A stretch of DNA of 64,000 nucleotides, taken from positions 310,001-374,000 of the forward strand of contig LGYU01000009.1 in NCBI GenBank assembly GCA_001302245.1. Reading direction: 5' to 3'. The stretch comes from Chitinophagaceae bacterium PMP191F (GTDB lineage: Bacteria > Bacteroidota > Bacteroidia > Chitinophagales > Chitinophagaceae). Position numbers and translations under genes: made by a program. Below the pieces are notes generated by a model that had not been told where the DNA came from, ran no database searches, and was given only the letters and a program-made list of their open reading frames with translations. This document shows, one piece after another, positions 11,991 to 30,317 of the stretch (the first letter of the stretch is position 1; every line of letters begins with the position of its first letter).

Positions 11991-12032
11991 CTATTGCATT
12001 GAAAATTCTTACCGGAACTTAAATCATACAAG

Positions 12033-12069
12033 AGCCTCTTCTGCTGACCCGGAAGAGGCTTTTGCTTTT
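12033..12069 (+). terminator. Terminator of glnN
   Basis: Stem AGCCTCTTC / GAAGAGGCT (12033-12041 with 12052-12060), 10-base loop, followed by TTTGCTTTT. Confidence 0.85.
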
Positions 12070-12175
12070 AGCCAGTTTGCAGATAGCTAATTGCTGTTAT
12101 TGATTGATGCGATCGGGTTTATTGATCTGTTTGGTAAATTGTTTGAGGCAGGTAGTTATACAGCGGAAGAATGGA

Positions 12176-12466
12176 TTAATTGTTTTTGACCCTTTGTGCT
12201 TCCCGTAAATATGCGACGAGCATGAGTGCGGAAAAGATAAGTAACAGGTAGTTGTTATTGGTAATAAAACTATAGGTGCCGCCTGTAAGAAATAGTATTG
12301 TAAAGAAAAGATAGACATTACGCATGTCATATTTGTGAGCTGTAAAAATGTAATCGATATCTTCCTGAGTGAACCCTTTGTTTTCCAGTTCCTCAATAAT
12401 TTCACCCTGGGGTTCGCCTTTTTTCAGCCGTGTTTTGATCTCGTTTATTTTTTGAGGTGTAACCAT
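12176..12466 (-). CDS. Small membrane protein of unknown function
   Basis: About 96 residues from the ATG at 12466 (a start at 12496 would add ten). A charged helical N-terminal part (MVTPQKINEIKTRLKKGEPQ, then IIEELENKGFTQEDIDYIF, a helix-turn-helix-like or SHOCT-like segment) precedes two transmembrane helices (NVYLFFTILFLTGGTYSFI and LLLIFSALMLVAYL). Ends in basic RVKNN. Not recognised; likely a small inner-membrane protein. Confidence 0.6.
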   Translation of the reverse strand: MVTPQKINEIKTRLKKGEPQGEIIEELENKGFTQEDIDYIFTAHKYDMRNVYLFFTILFLTGGTYSFITNNNYLLLIFSALMLVAYLREAQRVKNN

Positions 12467-12496
12467 AGGAGTAAATATAGATAAAATATGGAGCAA

Positions 12497-12831
12497 CCTG
12501 TCTTACGAAGCCGGTTTGTAGCTTGTATGCGTCGGGTTTCCCATTCCCTGGTAGTGTTATTACCTTTATCCTCATCTCTTTTGACCCTTGTGCCTTCAAT
12601 ACGGTTTCCCGTACTATTGATACTAACTGTTTAAGTACATTAGAACCCGGATTCAGGACCTGAGAATATAAAAATTGACTTTCCTCAAATAAATGATGTA
12701 GGAGGGCAATTGTTTTTGTTTGCCTGAAACTTCGAGTATATTTAATGTTAGTACAATTTCATCCAGCCAGGCAGGGTTACCTGAAGACGGTAGCTGATTT
12801 TTTATTATTAAACCTCTAAAAAAACTGCGCT
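12497..12831. other. Intergenic region before the HsdR-N gene
   Basis: 335 bases without a supported gene. The last 120 bases carry the probable promoter of the next gene (12715-12744). Nothing else recognised. Confidence 0.6.
12715..12744 (+). promoter_or_regulatory. Probable Bacteroidota-type promoter of the HsdR-N gene
   Basis: TTTG (12715-12718), 18-base spacer, TATATTTA (12737-12744), one mismatch from TAnnTTTG. Start would fall near 12750, about 80 bases before the ATG at 12832. Confidence 0.5.
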
Positions 12832-13641
12832 ATGCTTTCACCTGCCAAGAAAAGCAAGCTGTTGCTGGCTTTAAAAAACTACCGGAAGAAATTCCTGGAA
12901 CGTGATCTGACAGAACTGGATGAATCGGGTACCCGCCTGATGATCAATAGTTTTCTGTCGGAAGTATTGGATTACCTGCCTATAGAAGAGATCAGAACGG
13001 AATATATGATCAAAGGTACCTATGCTGATTACATGATCCAGATGGGCGGTATACGTCATTTTCTGATAGAAGTAAAAGCCTATTCGTTACAGTTATCTGA
13101 AAAACACCTGCGCCAGGCAGTGAACTATGGCGCCAATGAAGGCATTGAATGGGCATTGCTGACCAATGGGAAACAGTTTGACTTTTACAAGATCATTTTC
13201 GGTCAGCCTATCGGAGAGAGAAAGATCTTTTCAGTTGATCTTAGTAATGCAGCCAGTCTTAAACATGATGCCGAACTTATACAATACCTGCACAAAGAGG
13301 CCGTATTAAAGAAAAGTCTGAAACAACTGTGGAGCAGGTGTGAAGCGCTGGACCCCGTGAATGTGGCGGGCATTATCTATTCAAAAGAAGTACTGACCGT
13401 AATTAAAAAGCTGGTAAAGAATAAATACTGTGAGAAATGTGATGACGAAGAGATCGTAAAATCATTGAATCGCATTGTACAGGAAAAGATAGACCCGGAT
13501 GTTATAAAACCCTATAAAACGGGCAAAGCCCAGACCAAAACAAAGAAAGCTACAAAATCTGGTGAAGCAATAGTACATGTGCCTGTAGTGGATATTACGG
13601 TAACGGATAGCGAGAGCGGACAGGAAGCTGTGTTGGGGTGA
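12832..13641 (+). CDS. Stand-alone type I restriction HsdR N-terminal (PD-(D/E)xK) domain protein
   Basis: 269 residues. Residues about 30-140 match the N-terminal nuclease domain of type I restriction R subunits: TRLMINSFLSEVLDYLP, then D66 in KGTYADYMIQ and E80-V-K82 in FLIEVKAYSLQL, the PD-(D/E)xK triad, then QAVNYGANEGIEWALLTNG. There is no helicase part; the C-terminus is basic and ends in a low-complexity tail. No modification or specificity subunit is nearby. It sits directly before the CRISPR locus and is convergent with the tracrRNA, whose terminator begins within 15 bases of its stop. Base composition is like the host's. Such solitary HSDR_N_2 proteins are widespread and of unknown role. 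Confidence 0.82.
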   Translation: MLSPAKKSKLLLALKNYRKKFLERDLTELDESGTRLMINSFLSEVLDYLPIEEIRTEYMIKGTYADYMIQMGGIRHFLIEVKAYSLQLSEKHLRQAVNYGANEGIEWALLTNGKQFDFYKIIFGQPIGERKIFSVDLSNAASLKHDAELIQYLHKEAVLKKSLKQLWSRCEALDPVNVAGIIYSKEVLTVIKKLVKNKYCEKCDDEEIVKSLNRIVQEKIDPDVIKPYKTGKAQTKTKKATKSGEAIVHVPVVDITVTDSESGQEAVLG

Positions 13642-13647
13642 GGAAAT

Positions 13648-13718
13648 AAAAAAGTCCCACAGAGTTTGCGGGACAAAAGAGTTATCACTCTTCGGCTTAT
13701 AGCCTTGTTGTGATTTGC
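13648..13718 (-). ncRNA. tracrRNA of the type II-C CRISPR system
   Basis: Read on the minus strand from 13718: GCAAATCACAAC is exactly complementary to the first 12 bases of the minus-strand repeat (GTTGTGATTTGC). Next come a nexus hairpin GGCT-ATA-AGCC (13694-13704), a 6-bp hairpin AAGAGT-GATA-ACTCTT (13677-13692), and a terminator stem GTCCCGC / GTGGGAC (13654-13674) followed by six T. This is the standard anti-repeat, nexus, terminator order of tracrRNAs. Bases upstream of 13718 could add about six more pairs to the repeat after a small internal loop if transcription starts earlier. About 71 nt long, divergent from cas9. Directly read; not tested by expression. Confidence 0.9.
13654..13674 (-). 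terminator. tracrRNA terminator hairpin
   Basis: 7-bp stem with one G-U pair, loop AAACTCT, then T-run at 13648-13653 on the minus strand. It also lies 13 bases after the stop of the convergent HsdR-N gene. Confidence 0.88.
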
Positions 13719-13722
13719 AAAA

Positions 13723-13753
13723 CAAATATAGTAAACAAAAAATTGAAACCAAA
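13723..13753 (-). promoter_or_regulatory. tracrRNA promoter (Bacteroidota consensus)
   Basis: On the minus strand TTTG (13753-13750), a 19-base spacer and TATATTTG (13730-13723) match the Bacteroidota primary sigma consensus TTTG...TAnnTTTG exactly. Transcription would begin about five to seven bases on, at or just before the anti-repeat at 13718. Confidence 0.82.
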
Positions 13754-13759
13754 TAAAAA

Positions 13760-16700
13760 ATGGCAAAAATTTTAGGACTTGACTTGGGAACTAATTCTAT
13801 TGGCTGGTCTATAAGAGAAACTGATAGCAATAGCCGAATGGAGTATTATCAGGTCTATTTTAGAGAACTATTGGAGAAAATTAAAGAAACCCAATCTATA
13901 CTTGATAATGAAATTATAGACTATGGTGTAGTCGTCTTTCAAAAAGGTGTTGGTGAAGGTAAATCAGGAGAATTTTCATTAGCAGCGGAACGTAGAAAAA
14001 ACAGAAGTAAACGCAGGCTATACAATGCTAAACGGTATCGGAAATGGGAATTGCTTAAAGTGTTGATTGAAAACTGGATGTGTCCGCTCACAATGGAAGA
14101 GCTTCGTTTGTGGAGTATTGGAAATTGGCAGGAGGTGGGTGGAAGGAAAAAGAATACAGGAAGAATTTATCCTTTAGGCAATGAGGCCTTTCAAAAGTGG
14201 CTAGCTTTTGATCCCGAGTATTTTGGAGAAAAGGAAATCTCGGAGAATGGAAAAGTCATTCGAAAAAATCCTTATGACCTGCGTTTTGAATTGATTAGCT
14301 CAGAAGAAACGAACGACTTTGCTAAAAAACAAAAAGTCGGCAGAGCTTTGTATCATTTGGCGCAGAGGCGTGGCTTTAAGTCGAGCCGAAAAAGCGGCAA
14401 ATCTACTTATGCAGAAAATGCTGAATTGGAAAAACTAAAGCAGAGAAACCCCGATTTTCAGATTACGATGCTTGCTAAAGAAAAATTGGAAAATGGTAAA
14501 CGTTTTCGAGCAAGCGGGGTTATTCAGCGTAGGTATTTTGAAGATGAGTTTTATGCCATCTGCCAAAAGCAAAACATTAGTGATGAACTAACAGCGAAGT
14601 TTTATAAAGCTATTTATTTCGTTCGCCCACTCCGTTCACAAAAAGGCTTGGTAGGTAATTGTACATTTGAAAAAGGCAAAGCAAGAATTCCTGTAAGTCA
14701 TCCGAAATTTGAGGAATTCAGGGCACTCCAATTCATCAACAATATCAAATGGCGGGAAGTTGGCACACAAACTTATGAAGCCATTCCTATCTCATTGAAG
14801 AAAAATATTTTTGAAGAACTATTTTTCCGAAAGCTAACGAGTGGGAAAAACAAAGGGAAAACTATTACTGAAACTTATTTCAAATTTGATGAGATTGTTG
14901 AAAAATATTCGGAAAATGAGAAATATGAATTCAACTACAAAAATAAGCCTAATATTTCCACCTGCCCTACTATTGCAGTTCTTATGAATGTGTTTGATGC
15001 TGAATGGGAAAACAAATTTATCGCAGATGAAAACAGTTACGGCATCAATTGGGAAGGTTTGTCTATCAGCTATACTGTTAAATACGGTATAAAAGAAGGA
15101 GAAAATCGGAAACTAGAAGTAGATGAGATTTGGCATTTGCTGTTTGATTACATTCAAACCAAAGATAATGCGGAAGAACTCGAAGTGTTTTGCAAAAATG
15201 TGTTCGGATTTGATCCTGATAAAGCAAGAGCATTTGCTGAAATAGACATTCAGCAAGGGTATGGCTCGTTAAGCTATAAAGCCATTTCTAAAATCCTTCC
15301 TTTTTTACAAAGTGGATTTGTTTATCCTGAAGCTGTTTTGTTTGCCAATTTGAAAAAAGTTTTGGGCGACACGTTTGAGGTTAACAAAGTGCAGGCGAAG
15401 AGAATCATTGACGATGCCATAAAAGAAACATCAGCAATCAAGGAAAAACGGAATATAGTCAATGGGTTGATTCAGCAGTTTTTTGCCGAACATAATACCA
15501 ACCGAGCTAAAGGCATCGATAATACGATTAAAGAAATGGCAGCTCAGGATACGCTGAACAAACTGAAAAAATACTTTGGCGAAAGTGATTGGAACAAAAA
15601 AACTGAAACTGAGCAAAGGTTGTGGGAAGATGAAATTCTGAACTTGTATTTAAAATTTCTTGAAGGAAAACAGATTAAAGAAGAAAAGGCATCTGTACAG
15701 TTGGGCAAAAATCCTGAAATAGATTACTATAAGCTGCCCCGTGTGGACGAATCGATTAAGCAATGTTTAAAAGCATCTTTTAATTTGCCGGATGATAGAT
15801 TGAGACATCTGTATCATCCATCAGATATTGAAATGTATCCTAGGTCGAAAAGCGAAATAGAAGTAAGAATTAATGGCGTTGAGCAGTTTGTAAAACAATT
15901 GGAAAGTCCGCAGCCTCCATCAAGGGGGTGGAAAAATCCTATGGTTATGCGAACACTCCACGAGTTGCGTCATTTGCTCAACTGCCTTTTGAGAATAGGA
16001 AAGATTGACTACGAAACCAAAGTGGTAGTGGAAATGGCGAGGGAGTTGAATACTAAAAACTATCGCAAGGCTTATACTGATTGGATCAATGATAGAGATA
16101 ATGAAAATAAGAGTTTCAAGGCAAGCATTCTTGAAGTGTATCAAATAACAGAACCGTCAATTGACGATTACAATAAATTTCGTTCAGCGGTAGAGCAAAT
16201 AGTAAATACAGAATTGATAGAAAATAAAACAACTATTTTTCAGAATAAATATCAAGAGTTTATTGATACATACCTAAACACAATAAAAATTCCTGAAAAC
16301 AATAAAGATGAATTGATGAGCAACGAGTATTATGACTATTTAATGTATTTGATTTTAAATAGAGGGGAGTTTAGGAAAATGCTCAACTTTAAAATTCCTA
16401 ACTCAAATAAGTGGCAAACTCAACTAATAGCAACTTCTTCTAGTTTTGAAAAAAAGTGGAAAGAATTATCTGAAATGCTAACGAAGTATAGATTATGGAA
16501 ACAGCAAAAATTTCAATGTATATACACAGGGCAACAAATTTCATTTACGCAACTTTTTACCGAAAATTATCAGATTGAACACACAATACCACGAAGTATT
16601 TCTTTTGATAGCGAACTCAAAAATCTTACCGTTTGTGATTCTGCTTATAACAACTTTGTAAAAGGCAATTTGTTCCCAACAGAATGCCCGAACTACGAAA

Positions 16701-18294
16701 CAGCGAAAGTATGTAAAACGGTAAAAGGCGATATTACTTGTTTTCCTATCAAAGATAGAGTTGAGGAAAGCATTTTTCCGAAAGTGAAAGAGTTGCATAC
16801 TCGTATTAAAAACTTAGACACAATCAATAAAGGATTGAACGATGAAGAAAAGAAAAATGCTAACATTAGATTAAGATACTATTTGAAATTTGAATTAGAG
16901 TATTGGGAAAGAAAGTTGTTGACATTTACTATAAAAAAAGGTGATTGGAAAGATAGTTGGAAAAACAGTCAATTAGTAGATACACAAATTATCTCAAAAT
17001 ATGCTAAAGCATATTTAAAAAGCATTTTTGAAAAGGTGGATGTACAAAAAGGTTCAATAGTAAATGATTTTAAGAAAATTTATCAAATAAAAGGTGACGG
17101 GCAAAAAGACCGCAGCTGGCACAGTCACCATGCAGTGGATGCCGCAACGCTTACACTTATCCCTGGTTCTGCAAGTCGGGAAGCTATTTTGAAAGAATAT
17201 TACATAGCTCTTGAAAACAAAAAGAAATATCACGCCAAGCCCTATAAAGGTTTTCAAACATCACATCTTTTGGATATAGAAAAAATAATTGTTGTAAATC
17301 ATATTTCACACGATAAAACTATAACAGAATCCTTTAGGAATATCAGAAAAAGAGGCTTTAAAACAGGCTGGGTTGCACAGGGTGATTCAATTAGAGGGAG
17401 GTTACATGAAGAAACATATTTAGGCGCAATAAAGCCTAACGAAGTAAAAGATGAGGGTAAAGCAATTAAGGATCCAATATCTGGGAAATATCTTACCAAA
17501 CAATTAAATGGAAAAGATGTAATTTGGGTGGTTCAGCGAAAGAAGATTGAGGACGTAGATATAGACGTCATTGTAGACGAAGCTTTGAAAGCCCACATTA
17601 AATGGCAATTGGGTAACGGAGTAAAAATAAATGAGGTGAAAGATTTTGCAGGTAATACAATCCGTCATATCCGGTTTAAAAAGTTTTCACCTTCTTATGA
17701 CAAGGCAATACAAGTAAAGCCTCATTTGTTTTCTTCAAAATATGGCCACAAGAATTTCTATTTAGCTAATAATGAAATTAATTATCTATGCCTTCTGTAC
17801 ATAGGAAAGGATAAAAATGGGAAAGAAATTAGAGCATTCAGATTTGTGAATTTATTTGAGTTCTCTAAAATGAAGGACAAGCGAATTAATTTATTGTTTC
17901 ATAATGAAGACTATAATGTCTTTGTTAAAGTTAATCGGAGTAATGAGTACAAGCTTAATATAAAGTGTATTTTGAAAGTCGACCAGAAAGTCATTTTGTA
18001 TAAGAGTTCTATAGAGGAAATTGATAAACAGAACCTTGATAACTATAGGTGTCGAATTTTTAAAATTTATAAATTTAACAACTCTGGTTCTGATTATATT
18101 TTTTTACAGAACATCATTGAAGCCAGAAATGATGATGGATTGATAAAAGCAGGATTTACAAAAGATGGAGACACAGAATTTAAGCCAAAACAATATCAGC
18201 CTCGCTTAAAATTAACGGCAGATAACTTCAACTGCCTTTTTGAAGGAGTTGATTTTGAAATAAAGCCAGATGGAACAATAAAGTGGATTAAATC

Positions 18295-18298
<4 letters not shown>
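13760..18298 (+). CDS. cas9: CRISPR-associated endonuclease Cas9, type II-C
   Basis: RNA-guided DNA nuclease, 1512 residues, in the range of the long Bacteroidota Cas9 proteins. Seen in order: RuvC-I KILGLDLGTNSIGWSI with D8; arginine-rich bridge helix RRKNRSKRRLYNAKRYRKW (about 76-94); recognition lobe; RuvC-II VVVEMARELN with E758; HNH motif YQIEHTIPRSISFD with H941 (Glu rather than Asp precedes it, as is usual in Bacteroidota) and YNNFVKGN; RuvC-III SHHAVDAATLTL with H1124 and D1127; a long C-terminal PAM-interacting region. All catalytic positions are intact. The gene is far more AT-rich than cas1, cas2 or neighbours (sampled rows 20-40% GC against about 53% in a cas1 row). It overlaps cas1 by 4 bases (ATGA). 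Confidence 0.98.
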
Positions 18299-19568
<1,270 letters not shown>

Positions 19569-19610
19569 CCGTGTTGATCTTAAAATGGCAAAACCTGGTT
19601 GACAGGAATA

Positions 19611-19638
19611 AAAAAACGGGTCTTATAACCCGTTTTTT
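19611..19638. terminator. Bidirectional terminator between cas2 and the array
   Basis: Perfect 11-bp inverted repeat AAAAAACGGGT / ACCCGTTTTTT with loop CTTATA. It gives a hairpin with a T-run on both strands, as expected between convergent transcripts (cas operon on plus, array on minus). Confidence 0.88.
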
Positions 19639-19647
19639 TATTCTGTT

Positions 19648-19670
19648 TCCGGCCTCAAATGCAGGCCGGA
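19648..19670. other. Second hairpin in the cas2-array gap (possible leader element)
   Basis: 8-bp stem TCCGGCCT / AGGCCGGA with loop CAAATGC, 20 bases before the first repeat. No T-run. It is in the position where the adaptation-related leader should be if new spacers enter on the cas2 side; it could also reinforce termination of array transcription. Confidence 0.55.
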
Positions 19671-19690
19671 TAAGGGTTTTCTGTAATTCA

Positions 19691-22600
19691 GTTGTGTAAG
19701 AACTAATGTACAGAATAATTGAAAGCAAATCACAACCAATGATATGATGATTCAATGGCCAAATCCGTTGTGTAAGAACTAATGTACAGAATAATTGAAA
19801 GCAAATCACAACTTCTCCACCTATGGGTTTGGTTTTGACATTGTTGTGTAAGAACTAATGTACAGAATAATTGAAAGCAAATCACAACAATGGAAGATGG
19901 TATTCGATATGGTATGGTGTTGTGTAAGAACTAATGTACAGAATAATTGAAAGCAAATCACAACTTGTACATCCCTCCGAATTTCTTCATCACCGTTGTG
20001 TAAGAACTAATGTACAGAATAATTGAAAGCAAATCACAACTTACCCATCGGTATATCTATATCTGCATCAGTTGTGTAAGAACTAATGTACAGAATAATT
20101 GAAAGCAAATCACAACTACTTATTGTGCCCCCTTCGCCAGCACCTGTGTTGTGTAAGAACTAATGTACAGAATAATTGAAAGCAAATCACAACTCCAGTT
20201 ATTGAGGCCATCCATCAAAAAGGTTGTGTAAGAACTAATGTACAGAATAATTGAAAGCAAATCACAACTAAGTCGTCTTTTTGATAAAAACCATTCAGGT
20301 TGTGTAAGAACTAATGTACAGAATAATTGAAAGCAAATCACAACTTTTCCAAGGCGTTCTGCAAGAGATTCGATGTTGTGTAAGAACTAATGTACAGAAT
20401 AATTGAAAGCAAATCACAACTCCATCTTCCACACAAACTTTGGCGGTTCAGTTGTGTAAGAACTAATGTACAGAATAATTGAAAGCAAATCACAACTGAT
20501 CAATGGTTGATGGAGATTGATGATTTGTTGTGTAAGAACTAATGTACAGAATAATTGAAAGCAAATCACAACTTGCCGAGTCCATTGATCTTGAAGAGAG
20601 GTGTTGTGTAAGAACTAATGTACAGAATAATTGAAAGCAAATCACAACTTACGTCAGCAGGTTCAGTCACATGGAATAGTTGTGTAAGAACTAATGTACA
20701 GAATAATTGAAAGCAAATCACAACTAGTTGCACTTGATGCAAAAAATACGAATGGTTGTGTAAGAACTAATGTACAGAATAATTGAAAGCAAATCACAAC
20801 ATGCTATGGGTGGTTTATTTATCCAAAGATGTTGTGTAAGAACTAATGTACAGAATAATTGAAAGCAAATCACAACTTACGGTGGGGTGTAGGTGTTTTA
20901 AATATGTTGTGTAAGAACTAATGTACAGAATAATTGAAAGCAAATCACAACATTAACACGCCGATTATATAGATTTTGAACGTTGTGTAAGAACTAATGT
21001 ACAGAATAATTGAAAGCAAATCACAACAGTACTAACCGGATTGTCACTGGGCGGTGGTGTTGTGTAAGAACTAATGTACAGAATAATTGAAAGCAAATCA
21101 CAACTGGTCGTTGTAATGCCTCCGCCACCGCCACGTTGTGTAAGAACTAATGTACAGAATAATTGAAAGCAAATCACAACATTAGTGAGTTGTTGATTAT
21201 ATTCTTTTACGTTGTGTAAGAACTAATGTACAGAATAATTGAAAGCAAATCACAACTGCGTGGGTTTGATAAAGAAGCGGGAAAATGTTGTGTAAGAACT
21301 AATGTACAGAATAATTGAAAGCAAATCACAACTTATGAAATCATCTCCTAAATTCATTATCTGTTGTGTAAGAACTAATGTACAGAATAATTGAAAGCAA
21401 ATCACAACATTAACGGATCGATTTGGTCGGTTCCAGCTGTTGTGTAAGAACTAATGTACAGAATAATTGAAAGCAAATCACAACTGGTAATTGTTATGGC
21501 TCCTTTCACGCGCTTGTTGTGTAAGAACTAATGTACAGAATAATTGAAAGCAAATCACAACATAGGTGTACTGCAGAATAATCTAATATCAGTTGTGTAA
21601 GAACTAATGTACAGAATAATTGAAAGCAAATCACAACCGTGGTCAAGTTGGTATTGCACTAACAAATGTTGTGTAAGAACTAATGTACAGAATAATTGAA
21701 AGCAAATCACAACTAGCAGCAGTGGTACTATTTTTTCTTCCAGGTTGTGTAAGAACTAATGTACAGAATAATTGAAAGCAAATCACAACTAATGAGACAG
21801 CCCTTCAAATTGAACAATTGTTGTGTAAGAACTAATGTACAGAATAATTGAAAGCAAATCACAACTAATAACCACTTACAACCACCATAACTTCTGTTGT
21901 GTAAGAACTAATGTACAGAATAATTGAAAGCAAATCACAACTCATCCTGTTGTGGTTATGTCGGAGTAAATGTTGTGTAAGAACTAATGTACAGAATAAT
22001 TGAAAGCAAATCACAACACTCATTCGTTTTGATTTAATGAATGCTGTGTTGTGTAAGAACTAATGTACAGAATAATTGAAAGCAAATCACAACTAGTAAT
22101 GTATAATGCCGGAGAAGGGAATTGTTGTGTAAGAACTAATGTACAGAATAATTGAAAGCAAATCACAACTCATCCTGTTGTGGTTATGTCGGAGTAAATG
22201 TTGTGTAAGAACTAATGTACAGAATAATTGAAAGCAAATCACAACAGTACGAATGCTATCGTTTAATGGTTTATTGTTGTGTAAGAACTAATGTACAGAA
22301 TAATTGAAAGCAAATCACAACTACGGCACCAAGGCACTCATATTGAGCTCCGTTGTGTAAGAACTAATGTACAGAATAATTGAAAGCAAATCACAACTGC
22401 TGCGCTTCTGGAACTTTTTCATCCGGAGTTGTGTAAGAACTAATGTACAGAATAATTGAAAGCAAATCACAACTTAATGCGACTAAGGGGGTTAAAAATA
22501 CTGGTTGTGTAAGAACTAATGTACAGAATAATTGAAAGCAAATCACAACTTTTTGGAAGTGTTTGTGCATAATTATACAGTTGTGTAAGAACTAATGTAC

Positions 22601-25356
22601 AGAATAATTGAAAGCAAATCACAACTGCGTGGGTTTGATAAAGAAGCGGGAAAATGTTGTGTAAGAACTAATGTACAGAATAATTGAAAGCAAATCACAA
22701 CTAGTAATGTATAATGCCGGAGAAGGGAATTGTTGTGTAAGAACTAATGTACAGAATAATTGAAAGCAAATCACAACTATAGAACCTATTGATTAAACAA
22801 ACAATCGTTGTGTAAGAACTAATGTACAGAATAATTGAAAGCAAATCACAACATATAGGGGCAGACCTTTCCGAGATAAAAGGTTGTGTAAGAACTAATG
22901 TACAGAATAATTGAAAGCAAATCACAACTGCAAGATGGTAATGCATCTTTACATGACCGTTGTGTAAGAACTAATGTACAGAATAATTGAAAGCAAATCA
23001 CAACTCTACCTGGTCACACCAAACTTCAGGGTCGGTTGTGTAAGAACTAATGTACAGAATAATTGAAAGCAAATCACAACCTGTTGTATTATTCATCTTT
23101 TTGCAAATCTGTTGTGTAAGAACTAATGTACAGAATAATTGAAAGCAAATCACAACTGAAACCAGCGTGTTCCTCGGTTGACTGAGTTGTGTAAGAACTA
23201 ATGTACAGAATAATTGAAAGCAAATCACAACTATTCACATTTGTACCCATCTCCTGCATATGTTGTGTAAGAACTAATGTACAGAATAATTGAAAGCAAA
23301 TCACAACATAATGTGAATTATACAGGTTTTCAATCTAGTTGTGTAAGAACTAATGTACAGAATAATTGAAAGCAAATCACAACTCTTCGACATTAGCGAT
23401 CAACAATTCAAAAGTTGTGTAAGAACTAATGTACAGAATAATTGAAAGCAAATCACAACTCATTCAGCCCATTTTACCCGCGCTTCTATGTTGTGTAAGA
23501 ACTAATGTACAGAATAATTGAAAGCAAATCACAACCGTTGCGTTACCTCAAAGGCCTGGGACTTTTGTTGTGTAAGAACTAATGTACAGAATAATTGAAA
23601 GCAAATCACAACAATGGCAATTCAGTATTCAAAAGCAGTCAGTTGTGTAAGAACTAATGTACAGAATAATTGAAAGCAAATCACAACACAAGATGGTAAT
23701 GCGTCTTTACACGACCGGTTGTGTAAGAACTAATGTACAGAATAATTGAAAGCAAATCACAACACGCGTTAGGTTGTATTGAGTATGCATATGGTTGTGT
23801 AAGAACTAATGTACAGAATAATTGAAAGCAAATCACAACTATGATAGAGTATACACTACTGCTATCGGTGTTGTGTAAGAACTAATGTACAGAATAATTG
23901 AAAGCAAATCACAACTGTTTTCAACCAGTCAAGATCTGCTTGAATGTTGTGTAAGAACTAATGTACAGAATAATTGAAAGCAAATCACAACTAACGGGGG
24001 GCATGTTCGTTTTTTTACTTCGTTGTGTAAGAACTAATGTACAGAATAATTGAAAGCAAATCACAACATAACTTTCTGTCAGCTTATTAAGTTTTTTGTT
24101 GTGTAAGAACTAATGTACAGAATAATTGAAAGCAAATCACAACTATAATGTATGGTATAAGTTCTTGATCAAAGTTGTGTAAGAACTAATGTACAGAATA
24201 ATTGAAAGCAAATCACAACTATATACTGATGGTTGCCTTGATCCTGTGCGTTGTGTAAGAACTAATGTACAGAATAATTGAAAGCAAATCACAACTCCTA
24301 GCGCTTGTGCCGGCAAGTAGATCCAGGTTGTGTAAGAACTAATGTACAGAATAATTGAAAGCAAATCACAACTGGAGCCGGTGATCAACAAAATGGATGA
24401 GGGTTGTGTAAGAACTAATGTACAGAATAATTGAAAGCAAATCACAACTATGGCTATTCTTTGAAGAAAAAGGCCAGGGTTGTGTAAGAACTAATGTACA
24501 GAATAATTGAAAGCAAATCACAACCTATTCTCACCTACTTCCACACCTGTCCAGTTGTGTAAGAACTAATGTACAGAATAATTGAAAGCAAATCACAACT
24601 TTCAATCTTCCGGCAGATATTGGCTGCTTGTTGTGTAAGAACTAATGTACAGAATAATTGAAAGCAAATCACAACTGTTATCCCTTACAATAATACCATA
24701 GAGTAGTTGTGTAAGAACTAATGTACAGAATAATTGAAAGCAAATCACAACTATGAATGCTATGTACTAAACCCGATGATTGTTGTGTAAGAACTAATGT
24801 ACAGAATAATTGAAAGCAAATCACAACTGTGCGCAACATACCCGTGAAACCCTTGTTGTTGTGTAAGAACTAATGTACAGAATAATTGAAAGCAAATCAC
24901 AACTAATAAATTATGACACTCAGAGAAAAGGCGTTGTGTAAGAACTAATGTACAGAATAATTGAAAGCAAATCACAACTGACTGTCTCTGCTACTTTGTG
25001 CGAACGAGGTTGTGTAAGAACTAATGTACAGAATAATTGAAAGCAAATCACAACATACAAGCACAACAAGAGTCTGATAATAAGTTGTGTAAGAACTAAT
25101 GTACAGAATAATTGAAAGCAAATCACAACTGTCGCCTGTTGAAGCCGACAATGTACCCAGTTGTGTAAGAACTAATGTACAGAATAATTGAAAGCAAATC
25201 ACAACCAACGGCAATTGATACAATCGGATTTACTTGTTGTGTAAGAACTAATGTACAGAATAATTGAAAGCAAATCACAACTCTATCACTACAGCATCTG
25301 TTGTTTGTGTGTTGTGCAAGAACTAATGTACAGAATAATTTGAAAGTAAGTTGCAG
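19691..25356 (-). CRISPR. Type II-C CRISPR array: 75 repeats, 74 spacers
   Basis: Repeat of 46 bases, beginning GTTGTGTAAGAACTAATG and ending GAAAGCAAATCACAAC on the plus strand, with 6-base inverted ends GTTGTG/CACAAC. I located repeat starts from 19691 to 25311. All look identical except the last (25311), which has GTTGTGCAAG and a diverged second half, marking the trailer. Spacers are 30 bases, except nine of 29 and five of 31. The tracrRNA anti-repeat matches the minus-strand repeat start, so crRNAs are minus-strand (spacer then GUUGUGAUUUGC). Three spacers occur twice: 21257=22626, 21942=22170, 22094=22702. A degenerate repeat at the transcriptional 5' end and perfect repeats next to cas2 fit what is known of II-C arrays. 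Confidence 0.98.
25311..25356 (-). repeat. Degenerate terminal CRISPR repeat
   Basis: Matches the consensus for about 30 bases with one T-to-C change, has an inserted T (AATAATTTGAAAG), and diverges in the last 14 bases. It is the array end opposite to cas2 and presumably the oldest. Confidence 0.9.
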
Positions 25357-25397
25357 AGGCATTCACACAGACAACATGCTCTTGCATAGTGTGGTGG

Positions 25398-26570
25398 TTA
25401 CATGCTTTTTCTGAAGGCCTCTGTCACATAGGCTGCTGGTTGATATAGAAGAGTTTCGTTTACAGTTAGCTGCGAGTAGTTGTTTTCGTTGGGACGTGGC
25501 ATCTGGATATTGTAGGATGAATAGAGTGTTTGTTGTAGTTTTTTGCCATCGATATTTTTACCCAGTTCAATGCCGTATATATTGGTGCCCCCAGGCAACT
25601 GGCTGATCTTTATGCCAGGTATTTTGTTCAGGCCTGAAAAGATCTCTTCGCCTCTTTTTTTAGCATCCGACAAACGTGTTTCCAATCCCTCCAGCCGGTG
25701 AAGCGCCATGGCTGCATTGGTCCAGTTGCCATACATAGAGCCTCCATGTATTTTGATAAGATGCGGCATTTTATCGATTACAGTTTTATCGCCGCAAAGG
25801 ATGGCGCCCCCGCTGGCACCAAGATATTTATACAAGGAAATATAGATAGTGTCGAAACAGGCTGCATATTCTTTAACAGTATTGCCAGCCCAGGTGGTAG
25901 CCATATAGATCCTGGCACCATCAAGGTGCATCCGGATATTGTTGCTGCGGCAGTAAGTACTGATCTTCCTGATCTCATACAGCGGTACCATTTGCCCATT
26001 ACTTCTGCGTACGGGGTTTTCAATAGACACAACACCGGTGCCGGATGCAAACACTTCTTCATTAGGTATATTTTCCACAGCTTCCTGTAATTGCTGTGCC
26101 GTGAAATAAGGCTCGTTTTTTGCCAAAGGCATCAATCGTTTACCAAATACTGATTGTGCTGCATCGGCTTCATCGCGGTAAACGTGACTGGTATCCTGTA
26201 CAAATACCTTGGTGTTATTACCGCTCAATACAGCAATGGCCATTTGATTGGCCATAGTACCACTGGGCATATAAATAGCTTTTTCTTTACCGGTAATTTC
26301 ACAGAACTTTTTCTCAAGCGCTTCTATTGCGCCGCCAATACCATAGCGGTCTGGTTTAATGGCTGCAGCCGCTTGTACTTTTTGTAACACGTTCAGGTAA
26401 TCATCCGGATCAAACATTTCACCATCTCCCCAGAATTTGATCAGTGGTGTTCCCGGTGCAGTCTGTGGGGTGGATAAACCGGCTGCGTTTGCGGGTATAA
26501 AGGGTGCCAGTACAGGTAAGGTTGCCAGTCCGTACGTTTGCAGAAAGCGTCTTCTGTTAACAGGTGCCAT
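25398..26570 (-). CDS. Threonine aldolase-like PLP enzyme with twin-arginine signal
   Basis: 390 residues from the ATG at 26570; the open frame to 26648 adds a segment without signal character. The N-terminus NRRRFLQTYGLATLPVLAPF is a twin-arginine (Tat) signal, so the folded enzyme is probably exported to the periplasm. The body belongs to the beta-eliminating lyase/threonine aldolase fold type I group: YMPSGTMANQMAI, HLDGARIYMA with the PLP-contacting Asp near 217, and ISLYKYLGASGGAI with the Schiff-base Lys near 248. It probably cleaves a beta-hydroxy amino acid; substrate unknown. Its stop lies about 40 bases from the CRISPR array end with no terminator between, so its transcript may run into the array on the same strand. 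Confidence 0.88.
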   Translation of the reverse strand: MAPVNRRRFLQTYGLATLPVLAPFIPANAAGLSTPQTAPGTPLIKFWGDGEMFDPDDYLNVLQKVQAAAAIKPDRYGIGGAIEALEKKFCEITGKEKAIYMPSGTMANQMAIAVLSGNNTKVFVQDTSHVYRDEADAAQSVFGKRLMPLAKNEPYFTAQQLQEAVENIPNEEVFASGTGVVSIENPVRRSNGQMVPLYEIRKISTYCRSNNIRMHLDGARIYMATTWAGNTVKEYAACFDTIYISLYKYLGASGGAILCGDKTVIDKMPHLIKIHGGSMYGNWTNAAMALHRLEGLETRLSDAKKRGEEIFSGLNKIPGIKISQLPGGTNIYGIELGKNIDGKKLQQTLYSSYNIQMPRPNENNYSQLTVNETLLYQPAAYVTEAFRKSM

Positions 26571-26690
26571 GTTGAAAAGGTTGGTGTTATACAAGCTAAT
26601 ATACTCATAATGCTGTAGAAGAGATGACCCGATAAAGTATGTTAACAAATAAGGGGAGATAGCCTGTTGTCAGTGGGGGATACCAGGATA

Positions 26691-26716
26691 AAAAAGGGCC
26701 GCTGTAAAAGCGGCCC
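26691..26716 (-). terminator. Terminator of the T9SS protein gene 26747-28366
   Basis: 8-bp GC stem GGGCCGCT / AGCGGCCC (26696-26703 with 26709-26716), followed on the minus strand by five T (26695-26691). Confidence 0.88.
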
Positions 26717-26746
26717 GCCGGGTGAGTCAGTAATCGACCTGTATAA

Positions 26747-28366
26747 TTATTTCACTACTTTTTGTACGAAGTTCTGTTCGCCGGCTGTGATATTTACCAT
26801 GTAAACACCGGAAGCAAGTATGCTCAGGTTGTTCAATGATATACGGTTGATGCCAGCCTGTGCCTGTTGTGTGATCCGCTGTATAATGCTGCCGTTGCTG
26901 TTGTACAGGATAATGGTTACGGGTCCTGCTTTGGACAACTCAATATTACAATTGATCTTATCAGTAAACGGATTGGGCTGAACATTGATGGCAACATTGG
27001 CGGTGCTGCCGGCCCGTACGGAAGCAATATTGCTGTAAGTAACTTTACCATCTATATCCACTTCGCGGATGCGATAGTACAAAGTACCTGTAGTAACAAT
27101 ATTGTGGTTGTAATTGTAATTGACCCTGCTGTTGGTGTTGCCGGCTGCCGGTGTTGAACCGATAGTTGTGAAGTCAACACCATTGCGACTGAATTCTATA
27201 TAGAAATTTTGCGTATTGATTTCTGTATATGTACTCCATGATAACTGGGTTGCATTGTTACGGTACACAGCCTGTAGGGGTGAAAGTTCAACCGGTAAGG
27301 TAGTGGTACAGATATCATTAAAACCTCTTGTATTAGTATAGGTGGCTGTGTCGTATGGTGTCATGGAGGTATTTACGAAAAGAAACTGCCTGGTACCATT
27401 GTTAATATTTTGATTAACCTGCAATGGTGCTATATTGCTGATACCGCTGATAGTACCATTGTTGTTGATAGAGCCGCTCACATATAGCTGACTGGGGCCT
27501 TTGAGTGTTCCGTTATTTTGTAAAGCTCCGTTTATACGCAGCTGCGCATTGGAGAAGTTCATGGTAACAGACCCTGCTCCGTTGATGGTGAGTGAGCCCT
27601 GTGTCCACAATAACCCTTCATTACGAACACTGTTGTTAAAGGTAATGCTGTTCCGGAACAACATCTGGTAAAGATTAATGATAGAGTCTCCGCTATTGCT
27701 GTTAAATGTATTCAATACAGATATTTTCCATTGATTGTATACGCGGCCCAAAGCGGTGAAACTACCATTAAAAATAACCTGGCCGGTATTGTTTAATGTA
27801 CAGCCATTGCCAAGGGTCATATTAGAGGCAAAATTTAAAAAGCCTTTATTGGTCAGCACGGTACCTGATTGGTTCAGGTTAGTTGTTGAAGTGAAATGCA
27901 TGCTGCCACAGGCATTATTGGTAACAGTCAATGCAGCATTCTGGTTCCATGCTATCCAGTTAAAGCTCCCATTGTTGATAATAGAAGCTCCGCTGGCCAG
28001 GCTCAGACCGGCAGTGCCCAGTTGTGCTGTTCCGTAATTGGTTAGGGTAGCTGCAAACGAGTTAGCAACCGTGGGGGTAAAGGTACCGCCGTTTTGTACA
28101 ATGATCTGAGAACCGGCGTTGGCAGTAATATTGCCTGTGTAAGCACCATTGTTAATTACTACCATTTTGGCACCGTTGTTCAGGGTAATACTGCTGGTTA
28201 CCGGCAGTGATATACATACTGTCTCGCCACTGTTGTAGGTTCCTCCTGTATTGGATACACTACCTGCGGGGCATTGTGCAGAAGCCTGTATACCTGCATT
28301 ACAGGCGGCTGTCACTAAAAACAAACGAACAATAAAACGAATGGAAAGAATGTTGAAATGTCTCAT
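26747..28366 (-). CDS. Secreted Asn-rich beta-solenoid-like protein with T9SS sorting domain (paralog A)
   Basis: 539 residues from the ATG at 28366 (MRHFNILSIRFIVRLFLV, a signal peptide ending near ASAQ); the 98 residues of open frame before it lack coding character. Next come CPAGSVSNTGGTYNSGETVC and a region of about 300 residues rich in 'NNG' turns (ITLNNGAKMVVINNGAY, GSIINNGSF style) that suggests a right-handed beta-solenoid. Then a linker NFYIEFSRNGVDFTTIGS and a C-terminal type A sorting domain (PNPFTDKINCNIELSKAG ... GVYMVNITAGEQNFVQKVVK), the signal for type IX secretion. It has a tandem paralog at 28722-30317. Likely a surface or extracellular structural or adhesive protein; function not known. 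Confidence 0.85.
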   Translation of the reverse strand: MRHFNILSIRFIVRLFLVTAACNAGIQASAQCPAGSVSNTGGTYNSGETVCISLPVTSSITLNNGAKMVVINNGAYTGNITANAGSQIIVQNGGTFTPTVANSFAATLTNYGTAQLGTAGLSLASGASIINNGSFNWIAWNQNAALTVTNNACGSMHFTSTTNLNQSGTVLTNKGFLNFASNMTLGNGCTLNNTGQVIFNGSFTALGRVYNQWKISVLNTFNSNSGDSIINLYQMLFRNSITFNNSVRNEGLLWTQGSLTINGAGSVTMNFSNAQLRINGALQNNGTLKGPSQLYVSGSINNNGTISGISNIAPLQVNQNINNGTRQFLFVNTSMTPYDTATYTNTRGFNDICTTTLPVELSPLQAVYRNNATQLSWSTYTEINTQNFYIEFSRNGVDFTTIGSTPAAGNTNSRVNYNYNHNIVTTGTLYYRIREVDIDGKVTYSNIASVRAGSTANVAINVQPNPFTDKINCNIELSKAGPVTIILYNSNGSIIQRITQQAQAGINRISLNNLSILASGVYMVNITAGEQNFVQKVVK

Positions 28367-28721
28367 CGAACTAACAGTTTTGAGTAAAGTAATATTCGCT
28401 CTGCTGTTGGTTCTGTATATGTGGAGACACATCGCTTTGCAGCGAATGCAGTTTATGGAGTGGGGTGAGTGATGATGTGGGAGGATTAAGCGTATCCAGG
28501 CATATATAAAAGATAAGGCAGGATCAACTATGCCGGACCTTATTCCACTGTTATATACGTAGCACGTATTAAAAAAGTTTTTTATTAAACAAATGCCCGT
28601 AGAATTTTTACAATACATGATTGCAATCAATAAAATTAAAAAGGGTTGCAGAGGAAGCAACCCTTTTTATTATGAATCCCGGAATAACAATACTGTATAT
28701 TCTGTTGAATTATTTTGAAAC
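28367..28721. other. Intergenic region between T9SS paralogs
   Basis: 355 bases without an ORF of coding character. Contains the terminator of the upstream paralog (28638-28668) and must hold the promoter of paralog A, which I could not place. Confidence 0.6.
28638..28668 (-). terminator. Terminator of T9SS paralog B
   Basis: Perfect 12-bp stem AAAAAGGGTTGC / GCAACCCTTTTT (28638-28649 with 28657-28668), loop AGAGGAA; gives T-runs on both strands. Confidence 0.92.
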
Positions 28722-30317
28722 TTACTTCACCAGCTTCTGAACAACATTTTGATTGCCTGCTGTAATAGAGGCCAGGTAAATGCCTGGTACCAATGCAGTC
28801 AGACCGTTCAGCGAAACCTGGTTGCAGCCTGCCTGTCCCTGTTTAATTACTTTCTGGATCATTCTGCCATTGGCATCATACAATGCTACTGTAACAGGTA
28901 CTGAAGTTTCCAGGGTGATGGTGAAATTGATCTTTTCTGTAAACGGATTTGGGTATACACTGGTAGCTATACCAACAGTACCGGCTATCTTTACAGAAGT
29001 GATATTGCTGTACGTGGTACGTCCGTCTGCATCTACTTCGCGAACACGATAATATAAAGTACCACCTGCAGTAGTGTTGTGTGTGTAATTATAATTAACC
29101 CTGCTGTTGCTGTTACCTGCTGCAGCTACTGAACCGGCTGCTGTAAAATCAACCCCATTGCTGCTGAACTCGATAAAGAAGGCCTGGGTATTGGCTTCAG
29201 TTACAGTATACCATGATAATTGTACAGCTTTGTTCTTGTAGCTGGCCTGCAATGGCGACAGTTCTACCGGCAGGGTAGTGGGACAAATGTCCGGGTTTGC
29301 GTACGTGTTAAAGTAGTTTGTAGTGTCGTAGGCTGTCATAGATGTATTGAGTTGCACGTTTGTACTGGCGTTATTGAGGGTCTGGTTTACCTGTATCTTT
29401 TGTGAACTGCTGATGCCCTGTATCGTATTGTTGTTGGCTGCTGCACCTGCTACATACAACATACCGCTGCTGGTAATAGGTGTATTGTTCATCAGTGCTC
29501 CGGCAATACGTAGCTGCGCATTGGCATTGTTCATTTTTAAAGCTGCAGAACTGTTGAACGTAAGTGAACCACCTACCCAGAACAGCCCTTCATTACGGAT
29601 CTTGGCATCACAGTTAAACCCGGTTTTGAATACCATCTGGTACAGATTGATTACCGAGTCTCCGTTTAAGGCCGTATTACCCAGCATCACCATTTTATAC
29701 TGGTTGTAAATACGTCCGCTGGTGCTGAAACTCCCTTTTACATACAGTACACCACGATTGTTGACGCTGGTACCGCTGCTGATAGTAACATCAGACAGGA
29801 AATTCATTTTACCGTTATTGATGATAGCAGAACCCGAATTGTTCAGGTTGATACTGCTATTGAAATTCATAGTACCGCAGGCACTGTTGGTTACAGTAAC
29901 AGATGTGCTCTGGTTCCATGCGCGCCAGGTCAGGTTGCCATTGTTGGTAACGGAAGCTCCGTTTGTCAATGATATGCCGGATACACCCAACTGGGTAGTA
30001 CCATCATTGGTCAGGGTAGCTGAAAATGTATTGGCCTGGTTGGGCGAAAACTCACCACCTTTCTTCACAATGATCTCCGAACCATTGCGGGCTGTGATAT
30101 TACCTGTAAACTTGCCTCCGCTCACTACCACCATTTTAGAGCCATTATTTAAAGTCACATCTCCGGTTACTGTTGCCGAGATACATACTGTTTCACCGTT
30201 TGTATAAAGACCGGGTGTGTTCGATACGCTGCCTGCCGGGCATTGTGCCTTTGCAGGAATTATAGTAATCAGGGTCAGTACAAAATTGAGAATAGCAATA
30301 GGGTAGAAATGTTTCAT
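28722..30317 (-). CDS. Secreted Asn-rich beta-solenoid-like protein with T9SS sorting domain (paralog B)
   Basis: 531 residues from the ATG at 30317 (MKHFYPIAILNFVLTLITII signal, cleaved near AKAQ). Same plan as paralog A and clearly a tandem duplicate: CPAGSVSNTPGLYTNGETVC, solenoid-like 'NNG/NDG' region (VTLNNGSKMVVVSGGKF), AFFIEFSSNGVDFTAAGS linker and type A sorting domain (YPNPFTEKINFTITLE ... GNQNVVQKLVK). Each gene has its own terminator, so they are probably separate transcripts. Exported through the outer membrane by the type IX system, whose components are not in this window. Confidence 0.85.
   Translation of the reverse strand: MKHFYPIAILNFVLTLITIIPAKAQCPAGSVSNTPGLYTNGETVCISATVTGDVTLNNGSKMVVVSGGKFTGNITARNGSEIIVKKGGEFSPNQANTFSATLTNDGTTQLGVSGISLTNGASVTNNGNLTWRAWNQSTSVTVTNSACGTMNFNSSINLNNSGSAIINNGKMNFLSDVTISSGTSVNNRGVLYVKGSFSTSGRIYNQYKMVMLGNTALNGDSVINLYQMVFKTGFNCDAKIRNEGLFWVGGSLTFNSSAALKMNNANAQLRIAGALMNNTPITSSGMLYVAGAAANNNTIQGISSSQKIQVNQTLNNASTNVQLNTSMTAYDTTNYFNTYANPDICPTTLPVELSPLQASYKNKAVQLSWYTVTEANTQAFFIEFSSNGVDFTAAGSVAAAGNSNSRVNYNYTHNTTAGGTLYYRVREVDADGRTTYSNITSVKIAGTVGIATSVYPNPFTEKINFTITLETSVPVTVALYDANGRMIQKVIKQGQAGCNQVSLNGLTALVPGIYLASITAGNQNVVQKLVK

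What the first reader, a model, noticed from the sequence alone, without database searches (positions are those of the whole stretch)
13648..13753. Complete tracrRNA gene with consensus promoter read directly from sequence
Seen: minus-strand TTTG-N19-TATATTTG, then a 12-nt stretch exactly complementary to the minus-strand repeat start, a nexus hairpin, a second hairpin and a terminator, total about 71 nt. Known: this is the order in all type II tracrRNAs, and the promoter fits the Bacteroidota primary sigma consensus. Inferred: the transcript starts at or a few bases before the anti-repeat, which would make it unusually short on the 5' side (little upper stem).
Basis: partly seen in the sequence, partly recalled or inferred. 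Interest (0 to 1): 0.82.

Follow-up and report, generated by a model that had tools for sequence, protein, structure and literature searches.

The report
Short Cas9 tracrRNA gene with promoter
This is the gene for the small helper RNA of a bacterial CRISPR-Cas9 immune system, and its predicted transcription start falls exactly on the first base that pairs with the guide RNA, a layout that recurs in many relatives and suggests the RNA may be made at its working length without trimming.

Summary
On the minus strand at 13753-13648 lie a perfect Bacteroidota promoter (TTTG-N19-TATATTTG), a 12-nt anti-repeat exactly complementary to the start of the CRISPR repeat, a nexus, a second hairpin and a terminator, divergent from cas9 (cas9-cas1-cas2, 74 identical 46-nt repeats). 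It is a type II-C tracrRNA: 25 relatives were aligned, the terminator stem covaries, and repeat and anti-repeat show a few paired changes. With published geometry (G of TAnnTTTG at -5), +1 is G13718, the first paired base, giving a 71-nt RNA. In 27 of 31 such genes (window included) a box puts +1 within 0-3 nt of the first paired base (shuffles: mean 6.5, maximum 13); in further loci 36 of 55 (shuffles 11.2). Genes with an ATGCC nexus, on 36-nt repeats where arrays were found, start 24-32 nt before the 12-mer in the 8 of 15 rows with a perfect box. So the short 5' side is real but normal for its own subclade. The 46-48-nt repeats also carry promoter-like boxes in the crRNA sense. Best reading: the tracrRNA's 5' end is set by its promoter, with little need for RNase III. 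Transcripts were not measured.

The parts
13750..13753 (-). -33 element TTTG of the tracrRNA promoter
   Evidence: sequence; 19 nt to the -7 box
13723..13730 (-). -7 box TATATTTG (TAnnTTTG); G at 13723 is predicted -5
   Evidence: position relative to the anti-repeat kept in relatives
13718..13718 (-). predicted transcription start (+1), first base paired with the crRNA
   Evidence: box geometry from passages of PMC6847099 and PMC9723704 applied; inference, not measured
13707..13718 (-). anti-repeat GCAAATCACAAC, 12 bp with repeat nt 1-12 GTTGTGATTTGC
13694..13704 (-). nexus hairpin GGCT-ATA-AGCC
   Evidence: all four pairs unchanged in 26 of 26 sequences
13676..13693 (-). second hairpin (7 bp)
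   Evidence: not part of the consensus fold of 26 sequences
13648..13674 (-). intrinsic terminator: 8-bp stem 13674-13654 and six T
   Evidence: in the alignment's 9-pair terminator helix, 6 pairs have two-sided changes
13760..18298 (+). cas9, 1512 aa, divergent from the tracrRNA
   Evidence: TIGR01865 336 bits; HNH_4
18295..19191 (+). cas1
   Evidence: TIGR03639, type II Cas1
19188..19568 (+). cas2
   Evidence: TIGR01573
19691..25281 (-). CRISPR array, 74 identical 46-nt repeats, 73 spacers of 29-31 nt; inferred crRNA sense is the minus strand
   Evidence: sense inferred from the anti-repeat
19703..19710 (-). promoter-like box TACATTAG inside the repeat (repeat nt 27-34, crRNA sense); one of 74 copies
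   Evidence: only 5 of 6 consensus positions
25311..25356 (-). degenerate terminal repeat: tracr-binding part lost (3 of 12 match), box half kept (31 of 34 match)

Best explanation
This is the tracrRNA gene of a type II-C CRISPR-Cas9 system of a Bacteroidota bacterium. RNA polymerase with the primary sigma factor binds TTTG-N19-TATATTTG and starts at about G13718, the first base of the anti-repeat. It stops at the terminator near 13648, giving an RNA of about 71 nt. This RNA pairs through a straight 12-bp helix with the first 12 nt of the repeat in each crRNA, and Cas9 binds the helix, nexus and hairpins. Because the RNA begins at the paired base, its 5' end would be set by the promoter and not by RNase III. 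crRNAs are probably started from promoter-like boxes inside the 46-nt repeats (weaker inference). Shown by sequence: anatomy, conservation, covariation, box position. Inferred: the start site, the absence of trimming, the crRNA promoters, Cas9 binding.
For: Anatomy and significance. Neighbours cas9, cas1, cas2 and array. Terminator covariation: 39 two-sided cells against a shuffled mean of 7.9, 0 of 500 shuffles. Repeat/anti-repeat paired changes at repeat position 8 (2 of 20 systems, which are sisters in the Cas9 tree) and position 10 (1 of 20). Perfect -7 box 2-14 nt before the 12-mer in 18 of 27 genes, shuffled mean 0.83, maximum 5 of 1000. A box of at least 5 of 6 positions puts +1 within 0-3 nt of the first paired base in 27 of 31 (range tested -1 to +4), shuffled mean 6.5, maximum 13 of 1000. 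Further loci: 36 of 55, shuffled mean 11.2, maximum 23 of 400. ATGCC-nexus genes: +1 is 24-32 nt before the 12-mer in all 8 of 15 rows that have a perfect box. Repeat-internal box in crRNA sense in 19 of 19 non-redundant 46-48-nt repeats, opposite sense 1 of 19, shuffled mean 7.3, maximum 15 of 2000.
Against: No transcript data. Shuffles do not correct for shared ancestry. At repeat positions 9 and 10, 9 of 20 systems are unpaired, and at position 12, 3 of 20; I read these as an internal loop and a bulge. The window's own repeat box is imperfect (TACATTAG, 5 of 6). F. johnsoniae promoters avoid G at -10 and -9 (passage of PMC6847099), yet 8 of the 27 tracrRNA boxes have one, and so do many repeat boxes. 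In the ACTTTTC/GCTTTTC subgroup the rule holds in only 3 of 18, and L037, L056, L059 and L096 miss it. A set found by covariance model gave 2 of 21 perfect near boxes (shuffled 0.41) and 6 of 21 at 5 of 6 or better (shuffled 5.6); it is mostly the ATGCC type. Rank correlation of paired extent with box distance is modest (rho 0.51, n = 18), and a laxer measure of extent gave none (rho 0.22). C. jejuni, also with promoters in its repeats, still uses RNase III (passages of PMC3656092).
Confidence: 0.8

Rival explanations
1. The tracrRNA starts further upstream (within or near cas9's first codons) and is trimmed by RNase III to the short form, as in S. pyogenes and in part C. jejuni.
For: The general type II pathway; C. 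jejuni has forms of about 74 and 62 nt (passages of PMC3656092). The ATGCC-nexus genes have a longer paired region and boxes further upstream.
Against: The 25 nt upstream of the anti-repeat add no pairing clearly beyond shuffles. The only perfect -7 box within 13560-13800 on either strand is the one 4 nt before the anti-repeat. Its position relative to the start of pairing is kept in relatives.
Confidence: 0.14
2. The gene is a tracrRNA and starts at 13718, but the crRNA side is still processed by RNase III within the 12-bp duplex or by trimming, so the system is not free of RNase III. (This can be true together with the best explanation.)
For: C. jejuni needs one RNase III cut although each repeat has a promoter (passages of PMC3656092). 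The window's repeat box is weak.
Against: A straight 12-bp helix is short for RNase III (general knowledge, not tested).
Confidence: 0.45
3. The box belongs to cas9 regulation (a shared or divergent control element), and its spacing to the anti-repeat is a by-product of a compact divergent intergenic region.
For: The box lies between cas9 and the tracrRNA, about 30 nt from the cas9 start. No perfect -7 box for cas9 was found on the plus strand in 22 of 23 loci.
Against: The box is oriented for the tracrRNA and shifts with the anti-repeat length: predicted +1 is 0-1 nt from the first paired base in all 10 straight-helix genes with a box and in 14 of 17 GAAA genes with a box.
Confidence: 0.05

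Closest known systems
tracrRNAs of clade X Cas9 orthologs (Gasiunas et al. 2020, PMC7606464; passages seen)
   Same: Repeats of 45-50 bp and a typically fully complementary repeat:anti-repeat duplex without a bulge, as the paper describes for clade X.
   Different: The passages seen do not describe where transcription starts; clade membership of this Cas9 was not tested against its sequences.
Type II-C systems of Campylobacter jejuni and Neisseria meningitidis (PMC3656092 passages; Neisseria as told in passages of PMC5006608)
   Same: Three cas genes; short tracrRNA in C. jejuni; promoters inside the repeats there and promoter-like boxes here.
   Different: The box is the Bacteroidota type, the repeats are 46-48 nt, and the predicted start is the first paired base, so no paired 5' extension is left to cut. 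C. jejuni shows forms of about 74 and 62 nt.
Flavobacterium type II-C systems (PMC8092290 and PMC10309648; passages seen)
   Same: Bacteroidota; repeat-encoded promoter proposed (a TTG 33 or 35 bp before each spacer); tracrRNA near cas9.
   Different: There the tracrRNA's transcription was left for future studies (PMC10309648); here a promoter is predicted and its spacing to the anti-repeat is compared across relatives.
Riemerella anatipestifer type II-C (PMC5006608; passages seen)
   Same: A 16-nt anti-repeat TGAAAGCAATTCACAA upstream of cas9 and 47-nt repeats, like the GAAA subclass here.
   Different: That study reports no promoter in its repeats; the passages seen place no tracrRNA promoter.

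Membership tests
type II-C CRISPR-Cas9 tracrRNA | anti-repeat complementary to the CRISPR repeat, outside the array and near cas9 | tested here: met
   12 of 12 nt, 41 nt before the cas9 start codon; paired changes in 3 of 20 systems
type II-C CRISPR-Cas9 tracrRNA | nexus hairpin, 3' hairpin(s) and an intrinsic terminator | tested here: met
type II-C CRISPR-Cas9 tracrRNA | cas9, cas1 and cas2 without csn2 or cas4 in the locus | tested here: met
   the three genes overlap end to end and lead into the array, leaving no room for another gene of 80 aa or more; csn2 or cas4 elsewhere in the genome was not sought
type II-C CRISPR-Cas9 tracrRNA | expressed and bound by Cas9 with crRNA | not testable with these tools
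   needs RNA and protein experiments
type II-C CRISPR-Cas9 tracrRNA | match to a curated Rfam family (not a defining feature) | tested here: not met
   two matches at E up to 1 in 12000-26000, neither at this gene; tracrRNAs vary too much for this to exclude membership (inference)
II-C with promoters inside the repeats | promoter element in each repeat in the crRNA sense | tested here: inconclusive
   19 of 19 non-redundant repeats at 5 of 6 or better, 5 of 19 perfect; of all 25, one (L051) has none; the window's own is 5 of 6
II-C with promoters inside the repeats | crRNA 5' ends map to those promoters | not testable with these tools
   needs 5'-end RNA-seq
clade X guide RNAs (PMC7606464) | 45-50 bp repeats and a bulge-free duplex | tested here: met
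   46-nt repeat, straight 12 bp; description from passages; placement in the clade itself not tested

The most novel reading that the evidence does not exclude
A large group of Bacteroidota Cas9 systems makes both guide RNAs at working length straight from promoters: the tracrRNA +1 is locked to the first paired base, and the 46-48-nt repeats are long because their 3' part houses a promoter. Relatives with 36-nt repeats keep the longer anti-repeat that suits RNase III. Repeat length, anti-repeat length and promoter position would then change together as one switch between two ways of making guides.
Probability: 0.35. Interest if true: 0.68.

Novelty: new variant of a known kind. Interest (0 to 1): 0.45.

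Why it matters
It gives a testable answer to how tracrRNA is transcribed in Bacteroidota II-C systems, which the F. psychrophilum study left for future work (PMC10309648, passages). It offers a possible reason for their long repeats and predicts which Cas9 systems could work without RNase III. The contrast between two kinds of related systems lets the idea be tested by 5'-end RNA sequencing.

Tried and rejected
Rfam gave no match at this gene. The search for related loci in genome contigs found no relative, so the genome search was used. Plasmids: 4 records with weak Cas9 matches, none with one place covering 80% of the query. Comparison within the genus was not possible: only the own genome is held. 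The array against phages: no match at E up to 0.5. Viral contigs: 0 matches to the tracrRNA core pattern. A lax measure of paired extent gave rho 0.22 and was replaced by a stricter one with rho 0.51; both are reported. A first regex for further rows missed most genes and was repaired. The covariance-model set did not by itself replicate the spacing (2 of 21 perfect near boxes against 0.41 in shuffles; 6 of 21 at 5 of 6 or better against 5.6), because it is mostly the ATGCC type; this is how the contrast was seen. The split of the 55 replication rows into 37 (33 fit) and 18 (3 fit) was made after seeing the data. A cas9 promoter on the plus strand was sought and not found in the window. The second match of the 120-nt query in the own genome is a promoter-like stretch without a tracrRNA core (by eye). 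Protein motif patterns for picking Cas9 worked badly and were replaced by blastp. Rows left out of the Cas9 tree by me: L104, L106, L109, L110, L116-L121, and proteins of 1000 aa or less.

Full report
What is there. The minus strand from 13753 to 13648 reads TTTG, 19 nt, TATATTTG, TTTT, GCAAATCACAAC, AA, a 4-bp nexus, a 7-bp hairpin and an 8-bp terminator stem with six T. The 12-mer is the exact complement of the first 12 nt of the CRISPR repeat as read on the minus strand; outside 19600-30000 it is the longest exact match to the repeat in the window. Simple shuffles of the intergenic sequence reach 12 nt in 6 of 3000, and none of 978 other 118-nt stretches does. The fold has z = -5.16. TTTG-N19-TANNTTTG occurs twice in the window, both strands counted.

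Surroundings. cas9 (13760-18298, plus strand, TIGR01865), cas1 and cas2 overlap end to end, followed by 74 identical 46-nt repeats at 19691-25281 with 73 spacers. This is a type II-C layout. The tracrRNA gene is divergent from cas9 and convergent with an ORF carrying an HSDR_N_2 domain (12832-13641).

Conservation. Cas9 matches at E up to 1e-50 were found in 28 of 394 family genomes, the own genome included, and one more in the class at E up to 1e-120: 28 relatives. Of these, 25 tracrRNA sequences were aligned with the window's. Left out were L042 (gene cut off by its contig end), L041 (none found) and L062 (of the ATGCC type). The nexus is invariant in 26 of 26. The terminator stem has two-sided changes at 6 of 9 pairs, 39 such cells against 7.9 in shuffles, and at most 7 when partners are slid. 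Across 20 systems with a known repeat, repeat position 8 changes with its partner in 2 (L055 and L058, sisters in the tree) and position 10 in 1 (L036); positions 9 and 10 are unpaired in 9 of 20 and position 12 in 3 of 20. A covariance model of these genes has matches at E up to 0.001 in 39 of 395 class genomes (the weaker ones include another tracrRNA type).

Where it starts. In F. johnsoniae the -7 element is T-12 A-11 T-8 T-7 T-6 G-5 (passage of PMC6847099), and F. psychrophilum gives -12 to -5 (passage of PMC9723704). Applied here, G13723 is -5 and +1 is G13718, the first base of the anti-repeat. Among 32 genes of the AAGCC type, the window's included, 31 could be given a first paired base from sequence (L100 could not). 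In 27 of 31 a box of at least 5 of 6 consensus positions puts +1 at 0-3 nt before that base (range tested -1 to +4), 24 of them at 0 or 1; 19 have a perfect box there. Shuffles give 6.5 on average and 13 at most of 1000. Misses are L037, L056, L059 and L096. Two subclasses are seen: a straight 12-bp helix (the window, its four nearest rows in the Cas9 tree, and others), and a helix that continues with GAAA(G) 5' of the 12-mer, in many cases across a U-U by U-U loop. In the second subclass the box lies further upstream, roughly by the length of the extra pairing. Against this, F. johnsoniae promoters avoid G at -10 and -9, and 8 of the 27 boxes have one.

Replication and limits. Of the 80 listed pattern loci, 67 rows were new (12 duplicates and 1 near an end dropped), and 55 could be classified (12 could not). 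36 of 55 fit at 5 of 6 or better (shuffled mean 11.2, maximum 23 of 400) and 25 with a perfect box (0.74, maximum 5). Split afterwards by 12-mer, 33 of 37 fit, but only 3 of 18 of the ACTTTTC/GCTTTTC kind; 13 of those 18 have a perfect box only further upstream. An earlier set found by covariance model did not show the near box. The relatives are not independent draws, and shuffles ignore ancestry.

The contrast. Seven Cas9 proteins beside genes with nexus AAGGCTATATGCC form one side of the Cas9 tree (support 100; L102 is a long branch; I had left out several rows, see Tried and rejected). The six ATGCC loci in which I found an array have 36-nt repeats; two of them (L104, L109) are not in the tree. 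In these six, pairing runs 6-18 nt beyond the 12-mer. In the 8 of 15 rows with a perfect box (L062 and L115 are the same contig) +1 lies 24-32 nt before the 12-mer. So the window's 5' side is short against these genes but ordinary in its own subclade.

Does extra 5' sequence help? Adding 25 nt changes the duplex from -17.4 to -21.2 kcal/mol, reached by 35 of 300 shuffled upstreams; cofold interaction goes from -14.4 to -15.6, reached by 54 of 300. There is no upper stem of note.

The crRNA side. In 25 repeats of 46-48 nt (two beside the other tracrRNA type; 19 after removing near copies), the part after nt 16 holds a TANNTTTG-like box (5 of 6 or better) in the crRNA sense in 19 of 19, in the opposite sense in 1 of 19; shuffles give 7.3, at most 15 of 2000. 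Perfect boxes: 5 of 19, reached once in 2000. Of all 25, L051 alone has none. In 36-nt repeats 1 of 6 has a box, three of the six being near copies. The window's own box is TACATTAG, imperfect. A degenerate repeat at 25311-25356 keeps 31 of 34 nt of the 3' part but 3 of 12 of the tracr-binding part. This agrees with the report that extra repeats in type II-C arrays mutate mostly in their first 15 nt (passages of PMC12080349). Repeat-encoded promoters were already proposed for Flavobacterium (PMC8092290, PMC10309648; passages), and reported absent in Riemerella (PMC5006608, passages).

Mechanism. Most likely the tracrRNA is made from 13718 to about 13648, pairs over 12 bp with each crRNA and loads Cas9, with its 5' end fixed by the promoter. 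Whether RNase III acts on the crRNA is open; C. jejuni uses it once even with promoters in its repeats (passages of PMC3656092).

Novelty. The gene itself is a new member of a known kind. The locking of +1 to the first paired base, and its link to repeat length, would make the group a variant; I did not find it stated in what I saw from the searches. Only open-licence papers were searched, and they were seen as listings or passages, none in full.

Noticed in passing
L039 12921+, L046 4656+, L055 (7051 on the reversed strand), L060 5397+, L097 7875+, L098 (7536 on the reversed strand): A second tracrRNA-like gene of another type (AAGGATTATTC.. body with its own anti-repeat) lies 92-150 nt (545 in L046) downstream of the first, same orientation, in 6 loci. 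The adjacent cas9 resembles the first gene's lineage, and in 5 of these 6 genomes the cas9 matches lie at one place only (G106 has more; G354 is 66% complete). In L039 the second anti-repeat looks decayed and cas9 is split into two frames. It could be a relic of cas9 replacement or a second scaffold in use.
   Followed up: partly
window 13500-13760 and 22 related loci: No perfect TAnnTTTG box for cas9 on the plus strand in 260 nt upstream in 22 of 23 loci; how cas9 is transcribed, across the tracrRNA gene, is unexplained. From the window's box frequency about 2 would be expected by chance, so this is absence, not clear depletion.
   Followed up: partly
window 25282-25356: A 75th, degenerate repeat separated by 29 nt from the last intact one; it keeps the box half and has lost the tracr-binding half.
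   Followed up: yes
window 19691-25281: Of 73 spacers only 70 are distinct, although all 74 repeats are identical.
   Followed up: no
window 12832-13641: ORF of 269 aa with an HSDR_N_2 domain, convergent with the tracrRNA and ending 6 nt from its terminator; by eye the sequence past the terminator in L038 looks similar.
   Followed up: no
L054, L061: The nexus loop carries an inserted stretch of about 13 nt in these two relatives.
   Followed up: no
loci L153, L157, L206, L216, L222 and others with GCTTTTC, ACTTTTC or similar 12-mers: A group with the box further upstream, possibly with a longer anti-repeat; repeats were not compared.
   Followed up: partly
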